From Dentipellis sp. KUC8613 (taxonomy: Eukaryota; Basidiomycota; Agaricomycetes; Russulales; Hericiaceae): a DNA stretch of 64,000 bases. Made by a program: the position numbers and the translations under genes. The notes below the pieces were generated by a model. The model was not told where the DNA came from. It was given only the letters and a program-made list of their open reading frames with translations, and did no database searches. The stretch lies in assembly GCA_002286715.1 (NCBI GenBank), contig NSJX01000001.1, positions 1,915,805 to 1,979,804 on the forward strand, read 5' to 3'. Positions 12,495 to 28,400 of the stretch are shown piece after piece. Each line of letters begins with the position of its first letter. The first letter of the stretch is position 1.

Positions 12495-13038
12495 AACACC
12501 CGGGGTTCGGTCATCCGACGCCAGTCGGATATGCCATCGTGTTTCGTCAAGTTCGCGTCTCAGGTCTGGAATCAGTCGTAATGGATACACGCACGTGCGC
12601 GCGGCGCGCGAATACTCATAGTCATATACTGCGCCGTGGACTTATTTTCGGGAGGCCACCACACAGCTCGCGTGTGTGGCACTCTCATTGGACATTGCTT
12701 GCAGCACGGACCCTCTTACAGATATCCCTCTCTTAGCCATAGTATGATGACTACTCCCCTGGGCTCGTTGTTCCCGAGATTCTCTGGTTTGGTGATAGAT
12801 TCCCATATACATACCACCGTTATTGATTTGTGATATTTTGCCGCAGATGGACGTTGCGCAGGCCCGGTGCATACTGTACGAATGTGTATGGTATGTATGT
12901 TCCCTATATGAGTATCTTACCAAGTAGTATTTGCATGCGTGTCGGCATCAGATGGCGCTTCAGCTGAGGTTCTGGATATAAGCTGCTTCTGCAGCAGCGA
13001 TGTTCAGCGGCTGTTGAGCTTGTCGCTTTTCCCTGACT

Positions 13039-13673
13039 ATGATGCTGATCTACAACATTGCCATCCTCTCGACTATCTTTCTAGTGTCCCCTGCGTCCGC
13101 GTACAGGATCATCTCCCCGACAGAACACACGATTTGGACTCTCACCGGACCCAAGTACGTAGCCTGGACCCGCCATGCATACGACTCTGGTGCCTTCGTC
13201 GTCACTCTGTCTAATAATGTGAGTAATCCCTCTGAGCCCTCATCGCACTGCGAGCTCACCCCACCTGCCAGAACCGGGACCTTTTGCCACAAAACGACGT
13301 GATTATCGCAGAGCGCGCCGAGGACAGCACAGACGCCAGCGGCCTCATCCTTATCAAGGACGCTGTCTGGGAGAACGCGTCCGCCCGTCCCGGAGGGGGA
13401 TACTACGTCCACTTTGCGGTGGATCGAAAAAACAGGCGTTCTCTGTATGCACAGGCGGGACCCTTCAGAATATCGAACTGCACGGACGACTGCGGAGACT
13501 TTCATCGTCGGGCGCGGAAGGACACCAGAACCTTTCGTCCTCAATTAGAGTTCGACCAACCGATCCAGAGCGGACCAGGAGGAGACGGCGAGTCCGTTGA
13601 CGCAGCACATGCGGTCTTCGACATGATGCTGCCGCCCAGCAGTACGGACCCGTATCTCTTTATAGCGAGGTAG
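13039..13673 (+). CDS. Secreted KNH-domain protein without GPI tail
   Basis: Exons 13039-13218 and 13272-13673 give 193 residues. A signal peptide (residues 1-21, ending SPASA) precedes a KNH-type domain: RIISPTEHTIWTLTGPKYVA, FVVTLSNN, then LPQND after the intron, matching MPQND at the same place in the upstream gene. The intron after the FVVTLSNN strand sits where intron 1 of the upstream gene sits. There is no Ser/Thr stalk or hydrophobic C-terminus; the tail is acidic and polar with Cys residues (NCTDDCGD). It is therefore predicted to be soluble and secreted, or to have lost its anchor. A further 3' exon cannot be excluded. Function unknown beyond the wall-associated domain. Confidence 0.7.
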
Positions 13674-14071
13674 GTAGGCAGTTTCATTTGACGCCCTTCA
13701 CCTCCTCTGGAGCAACTCATTGAGCTCTATGGGGTTATGTAGAATGGTGGAGGGTCCTAGTAACTTGAACTGCACCTGTCGTAACAAGAACTTGAACGCC
13801 AGCGCGTGACGATGACTAGACTTGTCCGCGGCTAGTACTAGTCACGGAGGGGTTGGAGTAGTCATGAATGGAGCAAATGTGGCTGTATCTCGAGGAATCG
13901 AAGGGATTTTTAGTGACCGTGGTGTGGATAGAAGATCGCCTTGCAGGATCGACTTCAAAGCTGAGAGATCCCGATGTGTGCCAAGGGACTGTTATCAGAG
14001 ATCTAATGGCCGAGACTTACCCGAAGATCTAATCTAATCTAATCTACACTTCAAAGCTCTTCCCGAGGCCT
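13674..14071. promoter_or_regulatory. Former upstream region of the QPRT gene
   Basis: This 400 bp interval ends at the left copy of the 15 bp target-site duplication. Removing the LINE would join it directly to the sequence 31 bp upstream of the QPRT start at 24207. It should therefore hold that gene's original promoter and 5' UTR, together with the 3' flank of the KNH gene. It includes a short AATCT repeat. This is inferred from the duplication, not from promoter motifs. Confidence 0.6.
14026..14046 (+). repeat. Short AATCT tandem repeat
   Basis: Three perfect AATCT units follow one GATCT unit, about 25 bp outside the left target-site duplication. It lies in the host flank and is not part of the LINE. 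Confidence 0.85.
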
Positions 14072-14086
14072 CCGACTCTAGATCTT
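14072..14086. repeat. Target-site duplication, copy at LINE 3' end
   Basis: CCGACTCTAGATCTT, identical over 15 bp to 24162-24176. The element's A-tail (T-run on this strand, reaching to 14095) starts at or within its last two bases, which is the expected position for target-primed reverse transcription of a minus-strand LINE. Confidence 0.88.
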
Positions 14087-14195
14087 TTTTTTTTTGGACA
14101 AGTCATGATATTATGCAGTTACTTATATCCTACGACTAAAGAACTACATAAAGACTTAAGCCACGAACAGGTCGTGCCTCCGAGGAAAAATGCGC

Positions 14196-17100
14196 TTATC
14201 CACACCCGACAGTGTCAGGTAGTGTGGGGTTCCGTGTACTCCTCCGGTTACCTAGATTAGTAGGGTCGCGGGGAAGTGTCATACCCACTAAAACCTCATG
14301 ATTCTGGTGCCAGTTGGGGGGCGGATGATTAAGGGTGGCTTCCCAGGTGTTCCGTAGACGGTTAATGGCAAAGGGGCTGCGGCGGAGTTGGCATGATATG
14401 ATGCGGTCGTCAGATAGGCAGTTTTCGATGGAGGAGTTCCAGCAGGTGGTTATTTGGTCGGGGGAATGGCGAACGCCTGCAATGACGAATTCACAACGAA
14501 GGGCCCAGATGGTATGGGTGGATTCGGATATGATAGTGCATAGGAGGCGGCCGGCGCCTCGGGCTTTTGCCGTCGGTCGCAGTGGGGCAGCAGCGCCCGT
14601 GGGAGAGAGCTGGTTATCGGTAACTGAGAGATTGCCGCATGCGAGGACGAGGCCAAGAGAAATGGTGGGCCAGCTATGGGGGCTGTGGGGCCAGAGCCTG
14701 CGCGCTAGATGCCAGATGAGCTGGGTGGAGGGCGAGGGGCAGTCGATAAGGATATGCCTTATGCTCTCGTCGGGCGCGCCGCAGCGTGTGCATTGCTGGC
14801 GGGATTCTTTGCCTGGGACATGTCGCCATTGGGAGCCCAGAGTAAAGGAGTTGTGGAAGAGGCAGAAGAGGAGTTGGTTAACTTTACGGTTCATATCCCG
14901 ACGGCGACAGCCCTGCCAGAGCATCGCAAAGGTTTCGAGTTTGCCAGTGAAGGCGGCGAGCGCATGTTGTGCTTCTTCCAGCAGGGCTATTGTGGTTAGT
15001 TTCATAGGGGGGGCTTTCCGGGATCGGATGCCTTGGTATGCCAATGATTGTGTGAGCGCGGCGAGTTTCGCACCGGGAAGATTGAAGCTATCAGGGATAC
15101 TTAGGTCGAGGTCATCAGGAACGGGTTTTCGGGCTCCTTCATCGGCACTGTCGTCTGCATATTCGTTTCCTTCCTCGCCAGCGTGGCCTTCGACCCATTG
15201 TAGTTCGGAGGGGGCCGTGCAGCGCCGGAGGAGGAAGGCTGCCTTTTTGAAGAGTTCGCTATTTGATACGCCTATCCAGCCGCGGTCTTCCCAGCGGGGA
15301 AGGTGCTGAGTGAGTCCAGCGACAGCAAATTGGGAGTCGGTTCGAATGGTGAGGGGGAAGAAGACAGGGACTAATTGCAGGGCAAGAATGATGGCGACCA
15401 GTTCGCCAACTTGGTTGGTCTGGTGGGATCCCGGGACGCGGAAGGAGCGGTTGCGTCGGTCACCTTCACGGAACCAGACGCCGCTGCCACAACGGGCATT
15501 GGCTTTGCCATTGTTGATACAGGAGCCATCGGTGTAAACAATAGTGTGAAGATGAGGTCGTACGGGATGGTCAGTGCGGCGGGTGAGGCGGTCGGCGGGT
15601 GGGACAAGGATGTGCGACGGATCAGTAAAGACGCGAAAGCATTCAGCTAGGTCCGTTTTGCAGGTAATGGTGGGGTCAAAGAGGATAGCGCCCTTCGTGG
15701 TGCAGGCAGTCTGCGCGAGGGCACGACGGCGCGGGGTATGGGTGAGGTCGTCAGCGATGGTTGTCATGCCAGGGCGCAGTTTTGGCATAAGGCAGTTGAG
15801 CATGTTATGTGCGGTTGTGGCACATTTGTTTGGATGGGGGCAACCGAGGTGGCGGTCAGATTGGCAGTGTGCGCAGGCGCAATTAATGCGGTTAAGATGA
15901 TGGCGTCCTTGTATGGTATGGGTGACACGGTGGGCTACTTGGACCAGATCTGCAATAGTTCGTACAGCATGTGTGTTCTGGAGGCACCGCGGTTGGGCAG
16001 TCATGCGGATGGACGGGGCGCCAAGGTTGTGCCAGGCAGGCAGTTGTAGTTTGAGGTCGTCCGTGAGTTTGAGAGCAGCGAACGAAACATGGTATTTTTT
16101 GGCGGCTTGGAGCATGCGGAGGAGGGATGGGGGGAGGGTGTTCGCTCTGGCACCTTGTAGGGGGGGGGTCCAGGTCTGGAGGAAAGTATTCATGACGGTG
16201 AGGTCCGTAACGTGGGGTGGGGTGAGTCGGTTGATAAGGGTGTCGGCGACAAAGGCCCAGGCCGGGCGTGAGGTAGAGAGATCAAGGTAGGACTTGAGCC
16301 ACATAAGTTCAATAGCTTCGTTTCTTGCTTTGACATCCAGCAGGCCAAGGCTGCCGTGGTCGGGCGAGCGGTAAAGGTATTTGGGATCGATAGCGGCAGA
16401 GTGGCGGTCCGGCCATAGGAAATGTTGTATTTCTTTAGTAACCGCATGTAAGATCGTGGTGGGCATACCTTGTACCGTGGTGAGATACTGGGTCATACTG
16501 CCAACAACCATTTGAATCACATGTCGTTTGCCAGCGAGGGTCGGGTAAGCAGATAGCCAGGCATTGAGGGTATTTCGAATTTTGTCGAGGGTGGTTTCCC
16601 AGGGAGCGTCGTCATCAAGGTTGTTCCCGATCCAGGCGCCGAGGTAACGTATAGCATGGTGGTCTGGGGCGATGGTGATGCCGGTCGGGAGGGGGGTGGG
16701 GTCGTCGGGGTGGAGTTTGCGCGTGGCGGTAACCTGTTGTCAGTACTCAGGCGTCCCGATAGGGATAACCTCAGTTTTGTGGATGTTGAAGCAGGCGCCC
16801 AAGGCGGTACACCATTGATCAAGTATGGCTTTAACATCATGGTAGCGGTCGTGTTCGCTGAGGTATAGGGCGGTGTCGTCTGCAAACAGACTAATGAGGA
16901 CGCGGTGGGAAAGGCCAGGGATCTGGTAGCCTTGGATGGCGGGACTGGCGCGAAGCATGGCGGGTAAGTATTCAATGGCTAGGTCGAAGAGGAGGCAGGA
17001 CAAGGGGTTGCCTTGGCGAACTCCGCGGGTGACACGGTACGGGGTACTGTGGAAGCCGTTGACAGCCACACGGGTATAAGCTTCGGAGTATAGGGATCGT

Positions 17101-19385
17101 ACGGTGTTAAGAAAACGAGGTGGGAGGTTGAATTTTTGAAGGGTGGCCCAAAGGTAATCATGGCGTACTTTATCATATGCTTTTTCTTGGTCAAGCGCCA
17201 TGATGACACCGTTTTCCTCAGTAGCTTCAGCATAGCTGATAATTAGCTGGGCCAGGCGGGTTTGGCTGAAAATTGATCGGCCTGGGAGGAACCCAGCCTG
17301 ATCGGGGCCGATGAGGGTATCGGCAACTTCAAGGAGTTGGTTGGTGAGTATTTTGGTAAGGAGTTTATAGTCGGTATTCAGGAGGGTAATTGGTCGATAG
17401 TTAGAGATATCTGTTTTATCATTCTTTTTATATATGGGACACATCCAGCCGTGGCTAAAGGGGGAACCGGGGACGAGACCATATGTTTGGATGTCATTGA
17501 ATAGGGACGTTAGTGTTGAGATGATATCGAAGGTGGGGGGCGAACTCGGGGTCGCGGCCGAGTGGACGTCGCGGAGAGTCTTCCACAATTCATACGGGCA
17601 GCCATCGAGACCGGTTGCCGTGCCATTCTTCGTTCGAGTCAGCGCGAGTAATACATCATCATTGGTAATTGGGCTGCTCATCTGGGAGGCATCACGGGCA
17701 TCGTTGTGGAGTGCGCGGGAGTCTGGTATGGAGGAAAGAGCGTGGCGGATTTCCTCTTGACGCTGGGGGGTCGTGGTGTCGGGGTTGAGGTCGCGTTGTT
17801 GTAGTTGGTCATGGTAGCGACCCGCCAGGTCCGCCATGCGGGGAGAGTGTGTCTCATACCGCGGATTTGCATCCACGAAGTTCAAGGGCGGTTTAAGGTG
17901 GTGTATGAGGTCTCGGGGCTTGGGAGACATAGTGGATCTAGTCCAGAGTTTAGTTGGGCGTTCCCCGTTGAGGGAGAATTTGGCTTTCATTCGCCGACGA
18001 TCAGAGGTACGAAGTTTATTACTGAGATGTTGGAGTTCGTGCATGAGCAGGGCTTCAGAGTGGCGCAGGTCGGGGTCAGTGGCGAAGTTCGGGTGTTGGG
18101 AGAGGGCAATACGGTCACGAGTTAGTTGGCGCATTCGAGTTGTAATTTTGCCGGTGTTGGTGCGTGCAATAGGTTTGATTGCAGAGATAAGGGAGTTTTT
18201 AAAAGCAGTCCAGAGGGTTTGGATGTTCTGGTCCTGGGTGCGGATGGCCGGGAGGTCGGCGATTCGCGCCTGCAGGCGGAGTCCTTCGGAGGTGATTGTT
18301 TTTAACAAATTTTTATTATTCAAGAGGTATAATGGTAAAGTCCAGCGTCCTCGCCCTGTGGCGGGGGCCTGTGTAGAGGTATAGCGGACGGCGACAAGGC
18401 GGTGATCCGTGGGGACGGTCGGGATAAAGCAGTCCCATTCGAAAACTGTATCCGCTACTCAGGTGGACGTGTAGATGCGGTCGAGGCGTGACTGGGAGAA
18501 GTTGTTAGTATGGTGGCTGGTGTATGTGAATAGCTTAGTATCGGGGAAAGTGTGTTGCCAGGTGTCCTGTACATTGAGGTGGGAACGTGCCTCCCGGAGG
18601 GCATCGGTTGCAGATGTGGGATCAAGGCGCATTGGCGCTCGATCGATTAGATCCTCAGTTAGGTTAAAGTCTCCGAGGACGAAGTCAGGGCGAGGGAGGT
18701 GATGAGCGTCGTACGCGGAGGTTAAACGAGACCAGAAGGGTACATGTTCAGACGCATCATTGGGGGCATATATGTTGACGAGCGTTAGGGACTCAGAGTC
18801 GTGCCAGGTGAGTGTTAGGGCCATGGCGCGTCCAGGGATCAGAGCGTACGATTTGCAGGAGGACGTGTTGAGAAGGGATTTGTTTAGGGCAAAGGCGACT
18901 CCCGCAGCTCCTCCGGGATTATCAGGATCGCTTGAGTGGAAGACTTTAAGACGTCGGGAGTGGAGGGTGTCGACTTGGAGGAAGTGGGCGTCTGTTAAGT
19001 GGGTTTCCTGTAGGGCGAGGATAGCAATGTTTTGAGCTTTCATGGTAAATTGGACTTCTGTCCATTTCGAGATCGGGCTAGAATTAATGAGGGCGGAGGC
19101 GCGTCCTTTCATGTTTAGGGTGGCAAGTTTAATATTTGCTCTGGTTTTCATGCCGTTGTCGGCGGTATGTGCCCGGATGGGGGCGGACCTGGGTGGGGTC
19201 TGGTTTTCGGTATGTAGGGAAGGAGAACCGCCTCCATGTTCTCCGCGCATAGGATGTAGAGTAGCCCCGGCGGGAGAAGGCTGCTCTCTACGGGCGGAGA
19301 GGCTCGAACCTAAGGACGAAACAGATGACCGAGAGGGAGTGTGATTTAAATCAGGTGTATTGGGGGTCGGCGTACAAGCCTGCAT
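14196..19385 (-). pseudogene. LINE ORF2: endonuclease, reverse transcriptase, RNase H; two stop codons
   Basis: One frame of about 1,730 codons interrupted only by TGA at 18459-18461 and 16740-16742. In order: an APE-type endonuclease (19385 to about 18450; QETHL, GDFNL, SRLDRIY), a reverse transcriptase with LFADDTALYLS near 16875-16890, an RNase H domain (about 15540-15100; VYTDGSCINNGKANARCGSG, TNQVGELVAI, WVEGHAGEEGNEYADD), and near the end CTRCGAPDESIRHILIDC, a Cys/His motif usual downstream of RT in such elements. The first stop separates endonuclease from RT; the second lies just after the RT palm. No frameshift was found. As read it cannot make a full replicase; recoding is possible but not suggested by any structure I can see. 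Confidence 0.9.
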
Positions 19386-19926
19386 ACGACCATCTGCAGG
19401 CAGGAGGGAATTAGCACCGCCCTCACGGGTTGGATGATGTTTAGGATGTATAAGGCACGGCGCCCCACGGAGAGCGCCTGGCCAGACATCAGAAACTTCA
19501 GCATCTCTGCACGGTTAGTCACTAAACCTAAATAGGTTACTGTTTGTTAGCCTAGGCCAATGGTGGTAGGAATCGTGCATCGGCTTTCCTGTCCGCACGC
19601 GGCAGTATATTTGGGCCTTTGCATAGGATTTCTCAGAACTCGGATTCCTGTTCGAGTTTGAGTGGGGCATCGGTCACGGGATGCAATTGCGCAGGCGTTT
19701 GTCCGAGTAACGCGGGCGGCAGTCGTGAGGCGGAAGTTCGTAAAAGGTCATTCGGGCGGAATCACAAGTTAGTTTATTCAAGCCGTGGTACGTCTAATTG
19801 GCATAAAGTTCTAGTTAAAGGTTTGTATGAAGTGAGATGGTGGTCTATGAGAGAGGGTCTATGAGAGGGGGTAAAGTGGGGAGACGGTAGCTTCGTGGTA
19901 AGTCTAATGTGGTTTGTTAAGCAGAA
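19386..19926 (-). other. Spacer between LINE ORF1 and ORF2
   Basis: Roughly 540 bp with no continuing coding frame. It separates the stop of ORF1 from the first Met of ORF2 and may carry the signals for ORF2 translation. No recognisable structure. Confidence 0.55.
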
Positions 19927-21713
19927 TTACGTAAGGCGCGTGGCAGGGCGAGCGGGGCGACCCCGACAGGGAGCGGTGATGACGCGGCGCAAAGGGCCTT
20001 CCCAGCCGGGGAGTTCCGGGAAGGGGCATAGGCCTCGGGGATGAGTGATAGCGTGGCAAAGGGAACACGAAAGGATGCCACGGCAGGTGCCCGTGCCATG
20101 GAAGTTAGTTGTGTATCGTAATTGTCTCATGAAGTGACGAAAGGCGAACCACAATTCATCTGAATGGATGAGCGAGCTATCAGCGGAGATGTTAAACCAC
20201 GGGGCAGGTTCACCTCCAACGGTCTTCATCTCAAGTTTCTCTACGACGAGGGACTTGAGGTAGGGGACGAGTTCATCAGGCTCAAGGTGGGCAAGGCCTT
20301 GTTCGGCAATTGAGGTATTGATCTCCATGAAGCGGGCCAGGCTGGTCTCGGAGAGCCAGTGTTGGAGGACGGCATCTTTGACGGTGGCGGCATCATCAGT
20401 CGTAAACCCAGAGACCACAAGGAGGAAGTCGGGGAGACTGGGATCAAAGGGAATTACTTGGAAGGTTATAGTTGCGGATGACCAGACGCCGCGGCGTAAG
20501 AGGGTGTCGGCTCCTGCCGAGGAGATGTTGTAAAGCATAAAGGCGGGAACAGGGCCTCTGGGGAGCCCGGGGGTGGACGGGTTCGTGCTTGGAGCAGCTA
20601 TCTTGACATCTGGTTCGCCGGTGGCCTGAACAACTGCGCAAAGGAGATTGAGGGAAAGATGAGGGTGGAGTGACGAATCATGAGCAACTTGGTCGAAGAT
20701 GCGGATGAAGATCTTGACGCCCGGGAGCGCCTCCCATGCTTCGAGCTGGGCAGGAGAGTTGGCATCAGTGACGGCAAGGGCGTGTGAGTCCGGTATCGGG
20801 TAGAAGGGCCCGGGGTGAAACTGGATGACGGCGAAGGGGGCGCGGACGATGGCCGGGGTGGAGGGGGCATTCATGGCGGCCACAGCACGACGAGAGAGTA
20901 GGCGGGAGGTGAGGGGCATGTCTTGTCATGCGCCAGCGGCAGGCAGAGGGTGCAGCCATGCGGGTGGGGTACGGGGAGGGGGAGGGACAAGGACGGGGTC
21001 AGCGAGAGGTGCAGTCTCCTCAAGGATCGGCTCAGGATGGGGGTCAAGGTCCAGGGGGGTCGGGCCAGTCAACTCAGGTTGTGTGTCTTCAGCCACGGGG
21101 GCGACAAAAGCCGGGACGTTCGGTGCCATGAGGCCAATCTTGGGGGCGGCGTCAAGGGCCTCGGAGGAGGCACGCGGGGGGGCCGGGTACTGTGCACGAA
21201 AGTCCCGAATGAATTCGGGCGCCCCGGGAGCCCAGCTAGAAGTCTCTGCCCCGTCGATCGACAGGTTGCTGTAGGGGGTGTGTATGAGTTATGAGTTATG
21301 GGGTAGAGTATGTGGTCATACCCAGAGGAGACCGTGCGTCGCGTCGGGGGGGAGTCCATCGTCGGAGTGGCGGTGCGTGGTATCTCCACGGAAGGGGACT
21401 GGGACCCGAGATGGGTCAGGGGGGAGAAGAAGTTGCCAGGGTCGACGGGTGAGGATGGGTGGGTCGGAGGAAGGGGCGGCGTAGTGGGGACAAGGACTGT
21501 ATTATCCATCATATTGACGTCACCCGGCGGGGCTGGCACCTGGTCAGGCACCTGTGCGGTCGCCCTTCGGGATCGGCGAAGGGGGGCGGGTGGGGTGAGG
21601 ACTGGGAGGTACAAGTTAGGCGGGGTGTGCGGGAGTGGCGAGTATGTTACCATCGAGATTGGGGCCTCTAGCCTGTGAGCGGGAGTGCGTGGACGTAGCC
21701 GCAGGTCCAGCAC
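19927..21713 (-). pseudogene. LINE ORF1 (gag-like), one stop codon and an intron-like gap
   Basis: The 3' part (19927-20919) encodes 330 residues ending in a CCHC zinc knuckle, Cys-x2-Cys-x4-His-x4-Cys (CSLCHAITHPRGLC), then basic sequence, as expected for a nucleic-acid-binding ORF1 protein. The same frame continues upstream past a single TGA at 20926-20928 to about 21268. A further Pro/Ser-rich open frame (21713-21322) lies one frame off. The two join exactly, phase 2 to phase 2, if a 53 nt segment 21321-21269 with GTATGA and CTACAG ends is removed. That gives 578 codons including the internal stop. A simple frameshift is the alternative. The start may be at 21713 or at the Met at 21653. 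Confidence 0.72.
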
Positions 21714-22975
21714 TTTGGGCTTTGCGGGCGGCCGTGGTGGACTTCGAAGGGAGGTCCTTCAGGGTAGCACAGGTCGCTGAGGAGCTCATAGCGGAGGTGT
21801 GGGAGTGTGGTGGATTCGATGGTAAAGTCGGGGAGTGGAAGTCGTGGTTAGAGAGTGTGGTGAACTTCTCGCTTTTATGTGTGTAGGTGAACAGGTTCTA
21901 TGGGTATAGGTCAGCGACGGTATGTAGGCGGCTAATCATGGGATGGGGCGGTTCGGGGATAAGCGAGGGCGGTCATTACCAATATGCTCGGGGTGAGTAC
22001 GGTACTTGGTATTTACGATGATGGTGGGGCATAGGAGGAGGTTGGCCGGCTCGAGCAGGGCGAGTCTGTCATAGGTTTGCAGAGTTAGTTCGTGGGAGGG
22101 TACGGGGCGTATGGGGGAAGTGTGGAACCCGCTGACTATGCGCGCAACGGCTTACAGCTTGCGCGTTGATTCGGAGTGGCGGAGTGGGTGGTGCACATGG
22201 TTGATAGGTTCGTGGACATAAGCGGGGCGGGGTGCGGGACGTGGCTCGGTAGGATTGGTGGAGATTCGGGGTCGGGTTGGTGTCAGTCCGGGTGTTGCGC
22301 AGGAGGTCGTCGTTACTCATCGGGAATGTGGTAAAATGTATTTGGACACCATCGGGTCGAGACGATTCCGATGTCACGGTACGGTGAATGGGGAATAGTG
22401 TAAGGGGTAGTAACTGGGGGATTATGCATACCTATACGGCGGTCATCGTGGCTAAGGGTTTGGCAGGTTCGGGCGGGTGTTCGTGGATAAGTATGTGATG
22501 GCCGGATATCGGGGTGGTCCGGGTCAGATGAGAGTCAATCAGGTTGAGGGGTATTGCATGCGGGTAAGGATAGGAGAGACTGAGGGGAGGCGGGTGTCTG
22601 CTATGAGTTTTGCGCGAGGTGGGGAGGAGGGACAAAGCGTAAGGTAGATGTGGCGTTGATTTCGGCTGAGGCCAATGCATCTGTGGCGGTGGCACGCGGT
22701 TACTGGATTGGGTTTATGCATGGTTTCGGAACGGGATGCGGTATTGAGAGTGTAGGAGTGGGGTGGATGGGTATTTGGAGAGCGTTCAAGGTTTGAATAT
22801 AGTATTGGTATGTTGGTAGTGGAAATAAGGAGGAGACGTGTATATATAATGGTGGCGGACATTAAGTTTCGCCTTTTGAATTTCGCTTAAGAGGTGGCGC
22901 GGTGCATATAAAGGTTGCTTAGGTAGGGCGTCTATTAGTAAAGTCTCTCAGTCTTTATTTTGCTCATTCACAAGA
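21714..22975. other. LINE 5' region, non-coding part
   Basis: G-rich on the plus strand like the rest of the element, with only short frames. It lies between the start of LINE ORF1 (minus strand) and the start of the antisense gene (plus strand), so it is a divergent intergenic interval of about 1.25 kb. The LINE promoter is probably further upstream, near 24161, or internal. Nothing else is recognisable. Confidence 0.5.
22907..22912 (+). promoter_or_regulatory. TATA box of the antisense gene
   Basis: TATAAA in the context GCATATAAAGG, 64 bp upstream of the ATG at 22976. The interval between them is pyrimidine- and A-rich and ATG-free. Position and context fit a core promoter firing antisense to the LINE. 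Confidence 0.55.
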
Positions 22976-23605
22976 ATGTCTCTCCTGCCACTCTTTTTTT
23001 CTAATCTCGGAAGCTGTGTCTGGTCTTTTCTCGGTGGGGAGGTGAGGGTTGTGGATGCGTCGGGGATTCCACTAGGTCCATATATCGATAGTACGTGTTT
23101 TGTGGCATATTATGAGGGTATAGAGTAATGACAGGATTGTAGATGGCGAGAAGCCTGGGGAGGTTACCCTTGTTGTCGAGAGTCGTAGGGTCCTGCCGGG
23201 GGTTTCTTCGCAGGTGGATACGGTGGTTTCAACGGCTGGCCTTATTCGGATGCTCGAGGAGGTTATTATTGCGGGCGAGGAGAGGCAGGGGTGGAAGGCA
23301 AGGCGGGAGGTAATGTCCGTGGAGGGTTGGGTGAAGGTGCATTTCCGGGCAGGGACAGATGAATGTGGCGAGGATCGGTTCCTCTGGGCGCCGCAGTTCT
23401 GTGTTGAGTAAGCATTAGTTTCCTTTTTTGGGTTGTCAGGTGGACTGACTTCGTCGTGTTTAGGCCAATGCAGGTGGAGGTGGTCGACGAGTACGTCGTG
23501 GATGCATCGGGGGGTATTGCATACATGGGTGAGCCAGTGCATCCCGTCATACAGCCACGTCAGGGTTTTTGGAAGGGAGTATTTGCCCGGTTGTTTAGGG
23601 CGTAG
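22976..23605 (+). CDS. Three-exon gene antisense inside the LINE, unknown protein
   Basis: Exons 22976-23090, 23143-23407 and 23464-23605 give 173 residues in phase. The introns are 52 and 56 nt, with GTACGT...TAG and GTAAGC...TAG ends and a TAATGAC branch-like site in the first. The N-terminus is hydrophobic (LPLFFSNLGSCVWSFLGG). Two segments resemble each other, VRVVDASGIPLGPYI early and EYVVDASGGIAYMG late, hinting at an internal repeat. The middle is charged (IRMLEEVIIAGEERQGW) and the C-terminus is basic and aromatic (GFWKGVFARLFRA). A TATA box lies 64 bp upstream. No family is recognised. It sits between the LINE ORF1 start and the LINE 5' end, opposite in strand, and within the target-site duplication, so it moved with the element or inserted into it. 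Short exons hide it from simple ORF scans. Confidence 0.68.
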
Positions 23606-24161
23606 GGGAACTATATAGATTTGGTGTCGCGCGGGCGCGGATCCAGTGATAGTTTCGGCGAATCTTAGGTGGATCCTTGAGGGAACTTTAGCTGGTTAGT
23701 GCGTGTCAATTGTGAGAAGAGGAAAGGCGAGGGAGGATGTCTAAGGGGGGTAATATGAATCGCGATTCGGTTTGAGGGAGCTGGTGGCGCGCTCGATTGT
23801 GGGTGATCAGCGAGTTGCGGCACACTCTTAGTATGTGGGGCATAGTAGCAATAGAAGTCCATTATTGTAGGGGGGTGGTCGTGTCTGATGTTCTTAGTGT
23901 GTCGATAGGTCTTAGGGTAGAGGGACGGGACGGCGTCGTAGTGACGTGGCAGGGTCTAGGGGCGCGGTACGGGTGTAATTCGTCATTCATGGGAATGTAG
24001 GCTGATATGTATTTTGAATATGGGGAGCCAGAGGGTAATCTGGGAGCGTAGATCGTTCTGGGAGGCGAGTTCATCGTCTTCCATGGTGATTCACGCTCGT
24101 CCTTGCCCCGGTGTTACCGTGGGAAAACTCGCCATGGTGGTGGTTCGAGATCAAGGAGCTC
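23606..24161. other. Distal 5' end of the LINE
   Basis: About 550 bp from the 3' end of the antisense gene to the LINE 5' boundary. No coding frame is supported. On the minus strand this is the very start of the element, where an internal LINE promoter would be expected. Confidence 0.5.
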
Positions 24162-24176
24162 CCGACTCTAGATCTT
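24162..24176. repeat. Target-site duplication, copy at LINE 5' end
   Basis: CCGACTCTAGATCTT, a perfect match to 14072-14086. It is followed after 30 bp by the QPRT start codon, so the insertion site was in the QPRT 5' leader or core promoter. Confidence 0.88.
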
Positions 24177-24206
24177 ACACATCTTGCCATCTTACAAGTA
24201 CCTACC

Positions 24207-25332
24207 ATGGCGTCTTCGACTATCCCATCCTACGCGCACCTCCTCCCACCATCCTGGAAGACGCAAGTGACAGCCTGGCTCGCTGAAGACACCCCATCTT
24301 TCGACTACGGCGGCTTCGTCGTCGGCGAAGACCAGCGTGAGGCGTTCCTGCTCGGAAAGGGGAAGCAGACGGCCGTGCTTGCCGGCGTGCCCTTTGTCGA
24401 CGAGATCTTCGCGCAGCTCGGGTGTACGTGAGTGCTTTCGCGGTATCTCTTGCTTTGATTTGAGAGTGATTTATCGTGCGTTGCAGAGTGGAATGGCACC
24501 TGAAGGAGGGCGAGACCTTCGAGCCCGTCAAGCGCGTCGCGACTGTCCGCGGACCTGCGCGGCACCTTCTCCTCGGCGAGCGCGTCGCGCTGAACCTGCT
24601 CGCGCGATGCAGCGGGATTGCGACCAAGTGCGCCGGAAGCCAGTCTGCCATGCGCAGTACTTATTGACGAGTCATATAGGTCGAAGCGGATCAAGGATCT
24701 CGCTCGTGGGTACGGATTCAAGGGCATCATCGCTGGGACGCGCAAGACAACGCCTGGGTTCCGGCTGGTTGAGAAGTATGGCATGATCGTGGGCGGTATC
24801 GATCCGCATCGGCACGACCTCTCCAGCATGATCATGCTGAAGGATAATCATATCTGGTCTTCTGGTGCGCTTGACTATTACCATTTATAAAGACGCATCT
24901 TACACCCTCTTCGACAGGCTCTATCACGGCCGCGATAGAGCAGGCGCGCAGTGTGGGTGGGTTCTCGCTTTTGCTGGACGTAGAGGTGCAGTCGGAAGCG
25001 GAGGCAGATGAGGCGATCGCTGCTGGTGCGGACGTCATCATGCTCGACAACATCGAGGGTGCGGAGCTCGTCGGTGTCGCGCAGCGTCTGAAGGAGCGGT
25101 GGGGCGCACCCGGGAAGGGCAAGAAGTTCCTTTTGGAGACGAGCGGCAATATCACCGAGAGCAACCTGCAAGAACGTGCTATCAACGGTGAGTGCTGCCT
25201 GCCTGGCACGGGAAACGGATCTCTCAATATCGTACCTGCATAGAAATCGACATCTTGAGCACGAGCGTCGTCCACCAGTCGGTACAACACATCGATTTCA
25301 GCCTGAAGCTACAAATACCCAAGAAGGCCTAA
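24207..25332 (+). CDS. BNA6: Nicotinate-nucleotide pyrophosphorylase (carboxylating), QPRT
   Basis: Five exons (24207-24427, 24487-24627, 24680-24864, 24918-25187, 25244-25332) give 301 residues, the usual size. The enzyme converts quinolinate and PRPP to nicotinate mononucleotide, the step joining tryptophan breakdown to NAD synthesis, in the cytosol. Diagnostic motifs in order: [97 protein letters not shown] and LETSGNI. The start at [17 protein letters not shown] matches the family's N-terminus. A 10 kb LINE now ends 31 bp before the ATG, so transcription must start within the element or the residual leader, or be reduced. The 3' end faces the regulator gene 88 bp away. The coding sequence shows no defect. 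Confidence 0.95.
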
Positions 25333-25420
25333 TAGCGATATCTACGAGAAGTCGTGTATGGTATGGAAGTAAGTAAATTACAACGTATGTATCTGTACTC
25401 TGTACTCTTCTCTCTACAAT

Positions 25421-28400
25421 CTACGGTGCAATGTGGAACTGCCATCCAGAATACGGATGCGTCATAGCGGGGGGATCGAATGGGAAGAAAGGTCCGCTGT
25501 CTCCCGGCATCATGGGCTCCCCTTTCGTCTGTAGTGGTCCGGTCGTCTGGGCGTCTTCTTGACCATGCGCGGCCATCGAATGCAGGAAGTATTGCATGCT
25601 GAAGTCGACCTCGGGCTCTTCGACTGGTTGGTAGAATGCACCACCAGCATGATTCAACCTGTCTTCCGGGATAACAACGCCAGAGCCAAAAGCATTCGAC
25701 GTGTCGGACCACTGATATGCATCGGGCGGCATGTACTGGTAGTCGGCGGTAGGCTGAGGGACAAATTTCGCTTCATCGCTCGGCGGCGGCGGCGACATGC
25801 TGGCGAGGCGCTGATCGTGTTTGTCAAGCAGGCCAGTCAGGAAGCGCGCGTATATCGCAGCAAGATGTCGTTCATTGACTGCGACTTCCTTGGAGGCAAG
25901 GGCATTGATGAAATCTCCGATCGCTGTCCTTATTCGCCGATGAGTAGCCGGGTCGAGGAGCGAGGAGAATTGGGGGCGGAGGAGCTGCACATGCCGTGAG
26001 CTTGAGCGATAAGAACCGGGTGAAGGACGACATACGTTGATCAGAAATCCGGTAACGAACGACGGGAACCAGTAGTACGCCTGCAGATCTGCGTCAGAGT
26101 GTACAAAGTGATTCACCGACGGACCGCTCACCTCCATCGCAAATTTGTAGATGCCGCTAGGAGCAAGTTTGTCCCTCACTATCTCAAGACACTCACAAGC
26201 AACGTCAGTTGACTGTATTTGTATTAATGTGAGTACCGAACGGTAGTACCGCCTGAATCACTCACTTCATCGACGACATGGCGGTCTTTAGGTAACCTTC
26301 TTTTGGAAGCTAGTGGAAATGCCGTGGTGAGAATTGCGAGCCTCAAGAACGCGCACAATCTGCGGCGCATAAGTTAGAAGAAAATATGCAGACACGTAGG
26401 ATCATGACTGACAGCTGCGAGTTGTAATTGCTGTAACGGCACATAGGATCTGTGCCGTCACGATGATGTCAGAATTGAGGCTCATGGTAAGAGATTGTCA
26501 CTGCGGCTCACGATTGCTGTCTGTCTCAACATCAAATTTGTTCACCCAGAACTCCATTGTCTTCGCCAGCTTGGCGCTGTACTCAGCAGCAGTCAACACG
26601 ACATCGAATTCTCGCGCAGCTTTCTCCGACGACCGACCCAGCGCGACCGCTGAATGAAACCGTTCGGCCACCAGCATCAAGTGGGCGTGCGTCACCAGAT
26701 ATATATCCAGCGGCGAGTTGAATCTCGAGGACCTGTACCAGTCCTGCGAGTCGCGGAGCAGCGCGTCAGCCACGGGCAGCGTCGGCATGTTCCCCAGCGA
26801 CATCAGATGCATCGCGTCGCTGACGTAGATGGACAGGTATGTTCGGACGCGGTCTACCGCTTCGCTCTCGTCGCAGCACGTAGGCGCGCGCCGATGGAGG
26901 CCAAGTTCCACAGCTATTCTGTAGCACGTCTTGGTGAGAGTGTGACGATGGGGATTTCATGAATCATTGCTTACTGAGCCCCGACGCCCGTCATCATCCA
27001 CGAGCGCACTTTATGCCAATTGCTGCCCGGGATGGGGAAGACGGAGTATACGATGTACGCCTGACAAGTGAATAGCGACTTCTTGCCGTCCACGAGGGCT
27101 TTCCCGGCAGCGTCGTTTGCGAATTTCATCGCCAGAGGGTATAGATGGGGGTGTATAGGGCTAAATCGTGAGGCGAGGGCACAGACTAGGACATATCAGC
27201 TCGGCTTGTGCGTTGGGCATCCGTCCGTGCGGTACTTACTGGCAGTGAAGAGGAATGGGCATTCCCATATGACGTTGGACGGTGTATGGATCCTTGGGTC
27301 TAAACATGAAACTGTCGTCTGGTCCCGCAATTTGCGACGTCAATCAATAGATTACAAGCCTGAACGACTGGGAAAGACTAACGTTTATGTGATCAAAGAA
27401 ACTGAAGGTATACATGGTCAACAGGGACGATACGAGGCAGGAATCTAGAGGAAATGCCTACATGCGCCATAGGAGGAAAATGTCGTCTGCGGAAACAACA
27501 CCATGTTTGACTATGTCCGGTAATGGTGGTTCAGCTGCGGCCTCGGATTCTACTACAGGACTATGAACGTCTGTGGGCGGTGCGTCCGGATACGAAGTCA
27601 CTGACCATCACTTGCGAAGAGCCTTGGCTCTGAAGCAGCATAGTGCGCCGGCAAGCGACATCGTAAATACTCCAGAAGCTGCAGATCTTCGGCGGTGGGC
27701 TCATATGGCACTGGTGATAGCCCTGTTACAAGAATCGCGTGAGAACAGCTTGAATAGACGGTCTATAAAAAGACGGACCCATGCCATCATATGATATGGC
27801 GAAGGGGTCGAACTTCTTCTGTGTCCTGACATGATAGGACACGCCCAACCACTGCTGCGCCTTCCTGTCTACTTTGACGCGATCTAGCCGCTCCAACAGA
27901 GCTTGGATCTCAGCGTCCTGTTCATCAGAACGATCTTCTAGCTCTTTCTGAGTGCTGCGAATGAAGAGCGTAAGACGCACGAAACGCGGACTAGACAGAA
28001 AGGTGACTCACGGGGCGGGCTTGCGCTTCTTTCTGGATCGCGGCACACACTCGCGGTTGCCGTCTACGCACCGTCGACAACCGGTCTCGGGAGAGTCATA
28101 CACGCATTTGCTCTTGAACAGTCGAAATTGTTAGAATTGCAATTGTAACGCGGTTCACAAAATTCACCTTTATCGACCTGCAGTAAACACAAGCTCCGCG
28201 GCTTCAGAGGAGCGGTCAGCGTATCGCTCGTGAAGCCTTTAGTGACATACACTCACGATGGAGGTTTGCCGGACCTTCTTCTCCTCACACGAACCGGTCG
28301 TTCCTCCTCACTCTCACTCGGGTCGTCTTGGGCATAAGAGGGATCCAACAAGCCGAAGTCCGGCCTCGTGGTAGTGGTCGAAGAGGAGGCGTAATTTGAA

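What the first reader, a model, noticed from the sequence alone, without database searches (positions are those of the whole stretch)
22976..23605. Spliced gene of unknown family carried antisense inside a LINE
Three short exons join in phase across canonical 52 and 56 nt introns to give a 173-residue protein, with TATAAA 64 bp upstream of the ATG. The gene lies on the strand opposite the LINE, between the ORF1 start and the element's 5' end, and inside the target-site duplication. Non-LTR elements rarely carry an extra intron-bearing gene, and in antisense its introns would survive retrotransposition because the LINE transcript cannot splice them. That would be a neat way to move an intact intron-containing gene. 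The repeated VVDASG segments suggest internal duplication. The reading frames and splice sites are seen; the cargo interpretation is inference.
Basis: partly seen in the sequence, partly recalled or inferred. Interest (0 to 1): 0.86.

Follow-up and report, generated by a model that had tools for sequence, protein, structure and literature searches.

The report
Spliced antisense gene inside fungal LINE
A jumping gene (LINE) in a wood-rot fungus carries, on its opposite strand, a small gene with two introns that some of its relatives in the same genome also keep, which suggests that this kind of element can copy an intron-containing gene intact around a genome.

Summary
The + strand gene (22976-23605, introns of 52 and 56 nt, 173 aa) lies inside a 10,075-bp LINE (- strand, poly-A, perfect 15-bp target-site duplication), between its 5' end and ORF1. 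It is not a chance frame: two other full-length LINEs (C139, C161) and a deleted remnant (C11) carry homologous antisense genes with three exons, intron phases 1 and 2, introns of 47-58 nt and a shared promoter block. Leave-one-out profiles rank each gene as the best untrained match (E 3e-13 to 0.0025). Public gene models of Dentipellis sp. KUC8613, the apparent source, contain two of the introns exactly. A fourth full-length relative (C91) lacks the gene and has a 0.9-kb instead of a 2.4-2.5-kb 5'UTR, so the gene is accessory. Both introns have survived retrotransposition, as expected of introns antisense to the LINE RNA. Expression and splicing were not tested. The protein matches no known family; its role (regulator or counter-silencing factor) is inference. 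Antisense accessory ORFs are known in LTR elements and human L1; a conserved spliced one in a LINE did not turn up in my literature searches.

The parts
14087..24161 (-). Non-LTR retrotransposon (LINE), 10,075 bp, 5' end at 24161, poly-A 3' end at 14087
   Evidence: poly-A and flanking 15-bp duplication; related elements elsewhere in the genome
14072..14086 (.). Target-site duplication, 3' side (CCGACTCTAGATCTT)
24162..24176 (.). Target-site duplication, 5' side (CCGACTCTAGATCTT)
14196..19514 (-). LINE ORF2 frame: APE, RT, RNase H; two in-frame stops
   Evidence: Pfam; stops
19927..21653 (-). LINE ORF1, broken by a frame change and one stop
   Evidence: ORF list; comparison with the C139 ORF1 start; stop
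22876..22912 (+). Conserved promoter block: TTGAATTTCGCTTA ... TATAAA (22907-22912)
   Evidence: genome-wide pattern: 3 matches, all at antisense genes; reversed control 0; C161 has TTGAATTTCGCTTA then TATTTAA
22976..23090 (+). Antisense gene, exon 1
23091..23142 (+). Intron 1, 52 nt, phase 1
23143..23407 (+). Antisense gene, exon 2 (the conserved domain)
   Evidence: leave-one-out profile E 5.3e-12
23408..23463 (+). Intron 2, 56 nt, phase 2
23464..23605 (+). Antisense gene, exon 3 (variable; stop at 23605)
24022..24044 (.). Conserved 5'UTR motif (GGAGCCAGAGGGTAATCTGGG), likely part of the LINE's own 5' control region
   Evidence: 100% over 23 bp with C139; same motif in C11 and a variant in C91
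24098..24161 (-). Conserved 5'-terminal block of this LINE group
   Evidence: 90% identical in C139, 86% in C161; by eye, variants at the 5' end of C91 and in C11

Best explanation
This is a third, accessory protein gene of a fungal APE/RT/RNase H LINE group. It is encoded antisense in the 5'UTR, under its own TATA promoter, and has two small spliceosomal introns. SHOWN from sequence: four homologous copies, conserved exon-intron plan, conserved promoter block, position inside separate target-site duplications (three copies), absence from one full-length relative. INFERRED: RNA polymerase II transcribes it from the internal antisense promoter and host splicing removes the two introns. In the full-length sense LINE RNA those introns are reversed (CT..AC) and cannot be spliced, so target-primed reverse transcription copies them unchanged and every full-length daughter carries a complete, self-promoted gene. 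WEAKLY INFERRED: the small, fast-changing protein is a trans-acting helper of the element, such as a regulator or an antagonist of host silencing, rather than part of the retrotransposition machinery, since C91 does without it.
For: Four genes with three exons and phases 1/2; leave-one-out profile hits E 5.3e-12, 5.4e-12, 3.1e-13 and 0.0025, each the best untrained match in 191 kb. The promoter pattern hits exactly 3 places in 34 Mb, all at these genes, control 0. Identity is lowest at codon position 3 in all six pairs, though by only 0.01 for window-C161, as for a coding frame on this strand. Separate target-site duplications: window 15 bp, C139 10-14 bp (its A-run merges with the poly-A), C161 18 bp. 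Public gene models contain intron 1 of C139 and intron 2 of C11 exactly, and an intron 1 of C11 in the same phase with another donor. The C91 5'UTR is 906 bp against 2416 bp in C139 and 2508 bp in the window.
Against: No RNA evidence. Exon 3 is poorly conserved; the public C139 model ends at the stop after exon 2 and does not use intron 2; the public C11 model uses a different donor for intron 1 (38 nt). Splice sites of C139, C11 and C161 were chosen by me with the window gene as guide. The C161 match is weak by sequence alone (E 0.0025). The opposite-strand frame also gives a match to C11 (7e-6), though weaker than the gene's (1e-8). No homologue outside this genome was found, so conservation is shown only within one species. 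Neither structure model is usable (mean pLDDT 48 and 32).
Confidence: 0.78

Rival explanations
1. The functional product is the antisense RNA (a regulatory or silencing-related transcript over the LINE 5'UTR), and the protein is incidental.
For: The promoter block is better conserved as DNA (75% over 75 bp between window and C139) than the gene body, where blastn finds only one 26-bp match, to C139; the protein diverges strongly (21-37% in exon 2).
Against: Open frame in 4 of 4 copies, shared intron phases, protein-level conservation with the third codon position least conserved.
Confidence: 0.1
2. A host gene was captured by, or inserted into, these LINEs and is ordinary host cargo.
For: It has introns and its own promoter like a host gene, and one full-length relative lacks it.
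Against: My single-protein and pattern searches of the 34-Mb genome found no copy outside LINE context: the 4 loci are 3 full-length LINEs and one LINE remnant with an RNase H fragment on one side and the 5' motifs on the other. A distant host family could escape such searches, and capture by the common ancestor of the carriers is still possible as an origin.
Confidence: 0.08
3. The real gene is the 207-aa frame on the LINE-sense strand (23072-23695), and the + strand gene is its shadow.
For: The frame is open in the window and its translation matches C11 at E 7e-6.
Against: Weaker than the + strand frame in all three comparisons (C11, C139, C161: 7e-6, 0.023, 0.033 against 1e-8, 1e-8, 0.007); lowest identity falls on the third position of the + strand codons; promoter and splice signals are on the + strand. 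Whether the opposite frame is open in the other copies was not tested.
Confidence: 0.03
4. A chance open frame with chance splice-like sites.
For: This LINE region is rich in open frames on both strands.
Against: 0 of 200 random sequences; four homologues.
Confidence: 0.01

Closest known systems
Human LINE-1 ORF0 and antisense promoter (papers seen in search listing with starts of abstracts only; details recalled)
   Same: Antisense gene in the 5'UTR of a LINE under an internal antisense promoter.
   Different: ORF0 is recalled as a primate-specific frame of about 70 aa without a conserved complete intron-exon plan; here 148-217 aa, three exons, shared by diverged LINEs of a fungus.
Antisense accessory ORFs (aORFs) of plant Retand, Grande and RIRE2 LTR retrotransposons (PMC11963269, passages read)
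   Same: Conserved extra protein gene antisense to the retroelement genes; function unknown; a regulatory role suggested.
   Different: LTR elements, placed between pol and the 3' LTR; in Retand mostly with a TRP28 domain; the word intron does not occur in that paper's main text; no TRP28 match here.
Penelope elements dispersing intron-containing host genes in Adineta vaga (PMC3846280, abstract and passages read)
   Same: An intron-bearing gene sits inside an element's target-site duplication; the authors note that antisense templates would retain introns.
   Different: Penelope has pLTRs and a GIY-YIG endonuclease and moved host genes in trans; [quoted passage not shown] Here it is a LINE and the gene is part of the element lineage.
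Antisense homing-endonuclease genes with spliceosomal introns in nuclear group I introns (PMC9548176, passages read)
   Same: A mobile element carries an antisense gene with a small spliceosomal intron (47 nt) and its own Pol II transcript.
   Different: Homing starts from a double-strand break in DNA, not retrotransposition, so introns need not survive reverse transcription.

Membership tests
APE-type LINE with RNase H (Tad1-like; clade name recalled) | APE endonuclease, RT and RNase H domains | tested here: met
   PF03372, PF00078, PF00075 in window and C91; PF03372 and PF00078 in the part of C139 scanned
APE-type LINE with RNase H (Tad1-like; clade name recalled) | Poly-A 3' end and variable target-site duplication | tested here: met
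   window, C139, C91, C113; C161 has the duplication but only a short run of four
APE-type LINE with RNase H (Tad1-like; clade name recalled) | RT groups with reference Tad1 elements | not tested
   only relatives from the same genome were in the tree
L1 ORF0-like antisense gene | Antisense position in the LINE 5'UTR | tested here: met
L1 ORF0-like antisense gene | Active antisense promoter | not testable with these tools
   conserved motif only
L1 ORF0-like antisense gene | Sequence homology to ORF0 | not tested
   ORF0 sequence was not fetched
Retand-type aORF | TRP28 domain (PF04195) | tested here: not met
   no PF04195 in the Pfam scan at E up to 10 of 4 antisense proteins, the C161 one without exon 3
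Retand-type aORF | Host element is an LTR retrotransposon | tested here: not met
   APE-type LINE with poly-A; the end regions compared share only the 15-bp duplication and one 8-bp word
Element that disperses an intron-containing gene (Penelope precedent) | Intron-bearing gene within target-site duplications at separate sites | tested here: met
   window, C139, C161
Element that disperses an intron-containing gene (Penelope precedent) | Splicing of the gene in vivo | not testable with these tools
   no RNA data held

The most novel reading that the evidence does not exclude
A LINE lineage has for a long time kept a complete, self-promoted, spliced protein gene on its antisense strand, using strand orientation to carry introns through reverse transcription, and the fast-changing protein counteracts host silencing of the element. 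That would make it a counter-defence gene of a non-LTR element and a natural vehicle for intron-containing genes.
Probability: 0.25. Interest if true: 0.9.

Novelty: new variant of a known kind. Interest (0 to 1): 0.74.

Why it matters
Retrotransposons are taken to erase introns; Penelope elements were described as the exception (PMC3846280, abstract). Here diverged LINEs at separate sites, three of them with their own target-site duplications found, keep the same two introns, because the gene faces the other way. That gives LINEs a route to carry genes with normal host-like expression, adds a third gene to a fungal LINE group, and provides a new protein family of a mobile element that could be tested for action against silencing. 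It also warns that 'intron-containing means not retrocopied' is unsafe.

Tried and rejected
Protein identity: Pfam gave only insignificant matches (window NS3 helicase C-terminal 0.017; C161 MmgE/PrpD 0.034 and Agenet 0.084; none for C139 or C11); the PDB profile search of exon 2 gave nothing under E 0.17; Rfam gave nothing for 13000-25500 at E up to 1. I considered an SH3/Tudor/Agenet-like barrel from the pattern of the exon 2 alignment; it is only a thought. AlphaFold models of exon 2 (pLDDT 48) and of P0003 with two relatives (pLDDT 32) are too poor; I made no fold search. Outside homologues: three protein searches gave none, one and two proteins, both of them from Dentipellis sp. KUC8613; only the 7999 candidates sharing most words were scored, and could not see proteins much longer than exon 2. 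Internal duplication of VVDASG: only in the window copy, so dropped. Selection inferred from the gene staying open while the LINE decays: the window LINE has about four breaks in 7 kb, so an intact 0.5-kb gene is expected anyway; not used as evidence. Other short LINE matches (such as C81, C132, C128, C157) cover only the 3' part and were not pursued; search counts are lower bounds. Literature: I saw listings with starts of abstracts: 5 of 5 papers, 15 of 72, 15 of 30, 15 of 55, 5 of 5, 1 of 1, 15 of 53; no title or abstract start seen there reports a conserved intron-bearing antisense gene in a LINE. The library is open-licence PMC only.

Full report
OBSERVATION. The three-exon gene is present as described: exons 22976-23090, 23143-23407, 23464-23605; introns 52 and 56 nt, GT..AG, phases 1 and 2; 173 residues. 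TATAAA lies at 22907-22912. The surrounding LINE runs from 24161 to 14087 on the - strand, with a poly-A and a perfect 15-bp duplication CCGACTCTAGATCTT at 14072-14086 and 24162-24176. Pfam finds APE, RT and RNase H in its ORF2 pieces. ORF2 has two in-frame stops and ORF1 is broken, so this copy is decaying although its target-site duplication is still perfect.

SAME GENOME, OTHER COPIES. The genome (34.1 Mb, 171 contigs) holds a small group of related LINEs. RT identity to the window copy is 63% (C113), 61% (C139), 54% (C161), 52% (C91), 54% (C102, with stops) and 65% over a part (C1:1129155) (such counts are lower bounds). The window protein finds one further place in the genome, C11 (E 6.7e-5); the C11 protein finds the window (1.4e-5) and C139 (7.3e-5); the C161 protein finds only itself. 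Reading the antisense strands at these places gave three further genes: C139 199 aa, C11 217 aa and C161 148 aa, all with three exons and phases 1 and 2; exon 2 is 265 (window), 331, 256 and 256 nt, introns are 47-58 nt. Lengths of each exon differ by multiples of three; intron lengths mostly do not. I chose the splice sites with the window gene as guide, so frame agreement is in part by construction.

INDEPENDENT GENE MODELS. A search of a 5.8-billion-protein set with the exon 2 alignment returned one protein, DENSPDRAFT_919987 of Dentipellis sp. KUC8613. It equals my C139 exons 1 and 2, including the splice of intron 1, and stops where intron 2 would begin. With the full-length alignment a second one appeared, DENSPDRAFT_849984. 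It is exactly reproduced by C11 with intron 2 as I modelled it and with intron 1 at the same acceptor but another donor (38 nt). Its contig length, 763,940, equals that of C11, so the window most likely comes from this fungus; the contig length given for the first protein (1,010,991) differs a little from C139 (1,006,568). Whether those models had RNA support is not known to me.

STATISTICS. Profiles of exon 2 built from three genes and run on all six frames of 191 kb (window plus 16 fetched loci) placed the left-out gene as the best untrained match in all four cases: E 5.3e-12 (window), 5.4e-12 (C139), 3.1e-13 (C11), 0.0025 (C161; next row 0.12). Identity by codon position, six pairs: position 3 is lowest in each (0.27-0.41, against 0.40-0.59 at positions 1 and 2); for window-C161 the difference is negligible (0.42, 0.42, 0.41). 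The opposite-strand frame of the window, as a control, matched C11, C139 and C161 at 7e-6, 0.023 and 0.033, against 1e-8, 1e-8 and 0.007 for the gene. The promoter pattern TTGAATTTCRCTTA-N10-40-TATAWA occurs at three places in the whole genome, each upstream of one of these genes, with no match for the reversed pattern; C161 has the first part followed by TATTTAA. None of 200 random sequences gave an equal TATA-led two-intron frame.

IS IT PART OF THE LINE? Full-length elements whose target-site duplication I found: window 15 bp, C139 10-14 bp (the A-run merges with the poly-A), C161 18 bp, next to a run of only four T on the strand shown, all with the gene; C91 17 bp, without it. So 3 of 4. 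C91 has long open ORF1 and ORF2 frames (607 and 1751 aa, stop to stop) and a 5'UTR of 906 bp, against 2416 bp (C139) and 2508 bp (window); frames there score at most 2.3 bits, E 36, with the four-gene profile. C113 is truncated near the 5' end of ORF2 (13-bp duplication) and cannot tell; C102 and C1:1129155 also seem 5'-truncated (no duplication sought). C11 is a remnant: an RNase H fragment, 50-59% identical to these LINEs over 59-111 residues, ends about 0.14-0.2 kb before the gene's promoter, and the 5' motifs follow the gene. The conserved 5' end, 24098-24161, is 90% and 86% identical in C139 and C161. The gene is thus an old, colinear component of the carriers. In the RT tree C91 and C102 are close sisters and window, C139 and C113 fall together; whether C91 lost the gene or branched before its gain is not settled.

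MECHANISM. Because three elements with their own duplications share both introns at homologous positions and phases, the introns came through retrotransposition each time (follows from the anatomy). The simple reason is orientation: in the LINE's sense RNA the introns read CT..AC. Transcription from the internal antisense promoter and splicing are inferred. The protein has no known domain. It evolves faster than the RT (exon 2 36% against RT 61% for window-C139; 21% against 54% for window-C161), which fits either an arms race or relaxed constraint. As C91 does without it, it is not needed for retrotransposition as such. I favour a trans-acting helper, regulatory or counter-silencing, at perhaps one in three.

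COMPARISON. Antisense accessory ORFs are known in plant Retand, Grande and RIRE2 LTR elements (PMC11963269, passages read) and as L1 ORF0 (listing and starts of abstracts; details recalled). [quoted passage not shown] Antisense genes with spliceosomal introns occur in group I introns (PMC9548176, passages). The combination here - antisense, two introns, conserved among diverged LINEs - did not turn up in the listings of searches (listings partly capped at 15).

VERDICT. A real, conserved, LINE-borne antisense gene with introns; a new variant of a known kind, with function and expression open.

Noticed in passing
window 24162-24207: The LINE's target-site duplication ends 30 bp before an ATG (24207) that is probably the start of a gene with quinolinate phosphoribosyltransferase domains (PF01729 further downstream; the start is assigned by eye), on the same strand as the antisense gene, so an antisense transcript could read into it.
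   Followed up: partly
L040 4043-5900 (C11:24042-25900): The antisense gene survives open in a LINE remnant whose middle is deleted, and is annotated as DENSPDRAFT_849984: possibly on its way to becoming a host gene.
   Followed up: partly
window 24022-24044 and 24098-24161: Strongly conserved 5'-terminal motifs of the LINE group, with variants in gene-less C91: probably the LINE's own internal promoter; no Rfam match.
   Followed up: partly
window 23041-23085 and 23477-23520: A short near-repeat (GTGGATGCRTCGGGG) in exons 1 and 3 of the window copy, not seen in the other three proteins.
   Followed up: partly
L028 and L030 (C91, C102): C91 and C102 are close RT sisters, so this branch, whose full-length member lacks the gene, seems to have moved more recently than the gene carriers diverged.
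   Followed up: no
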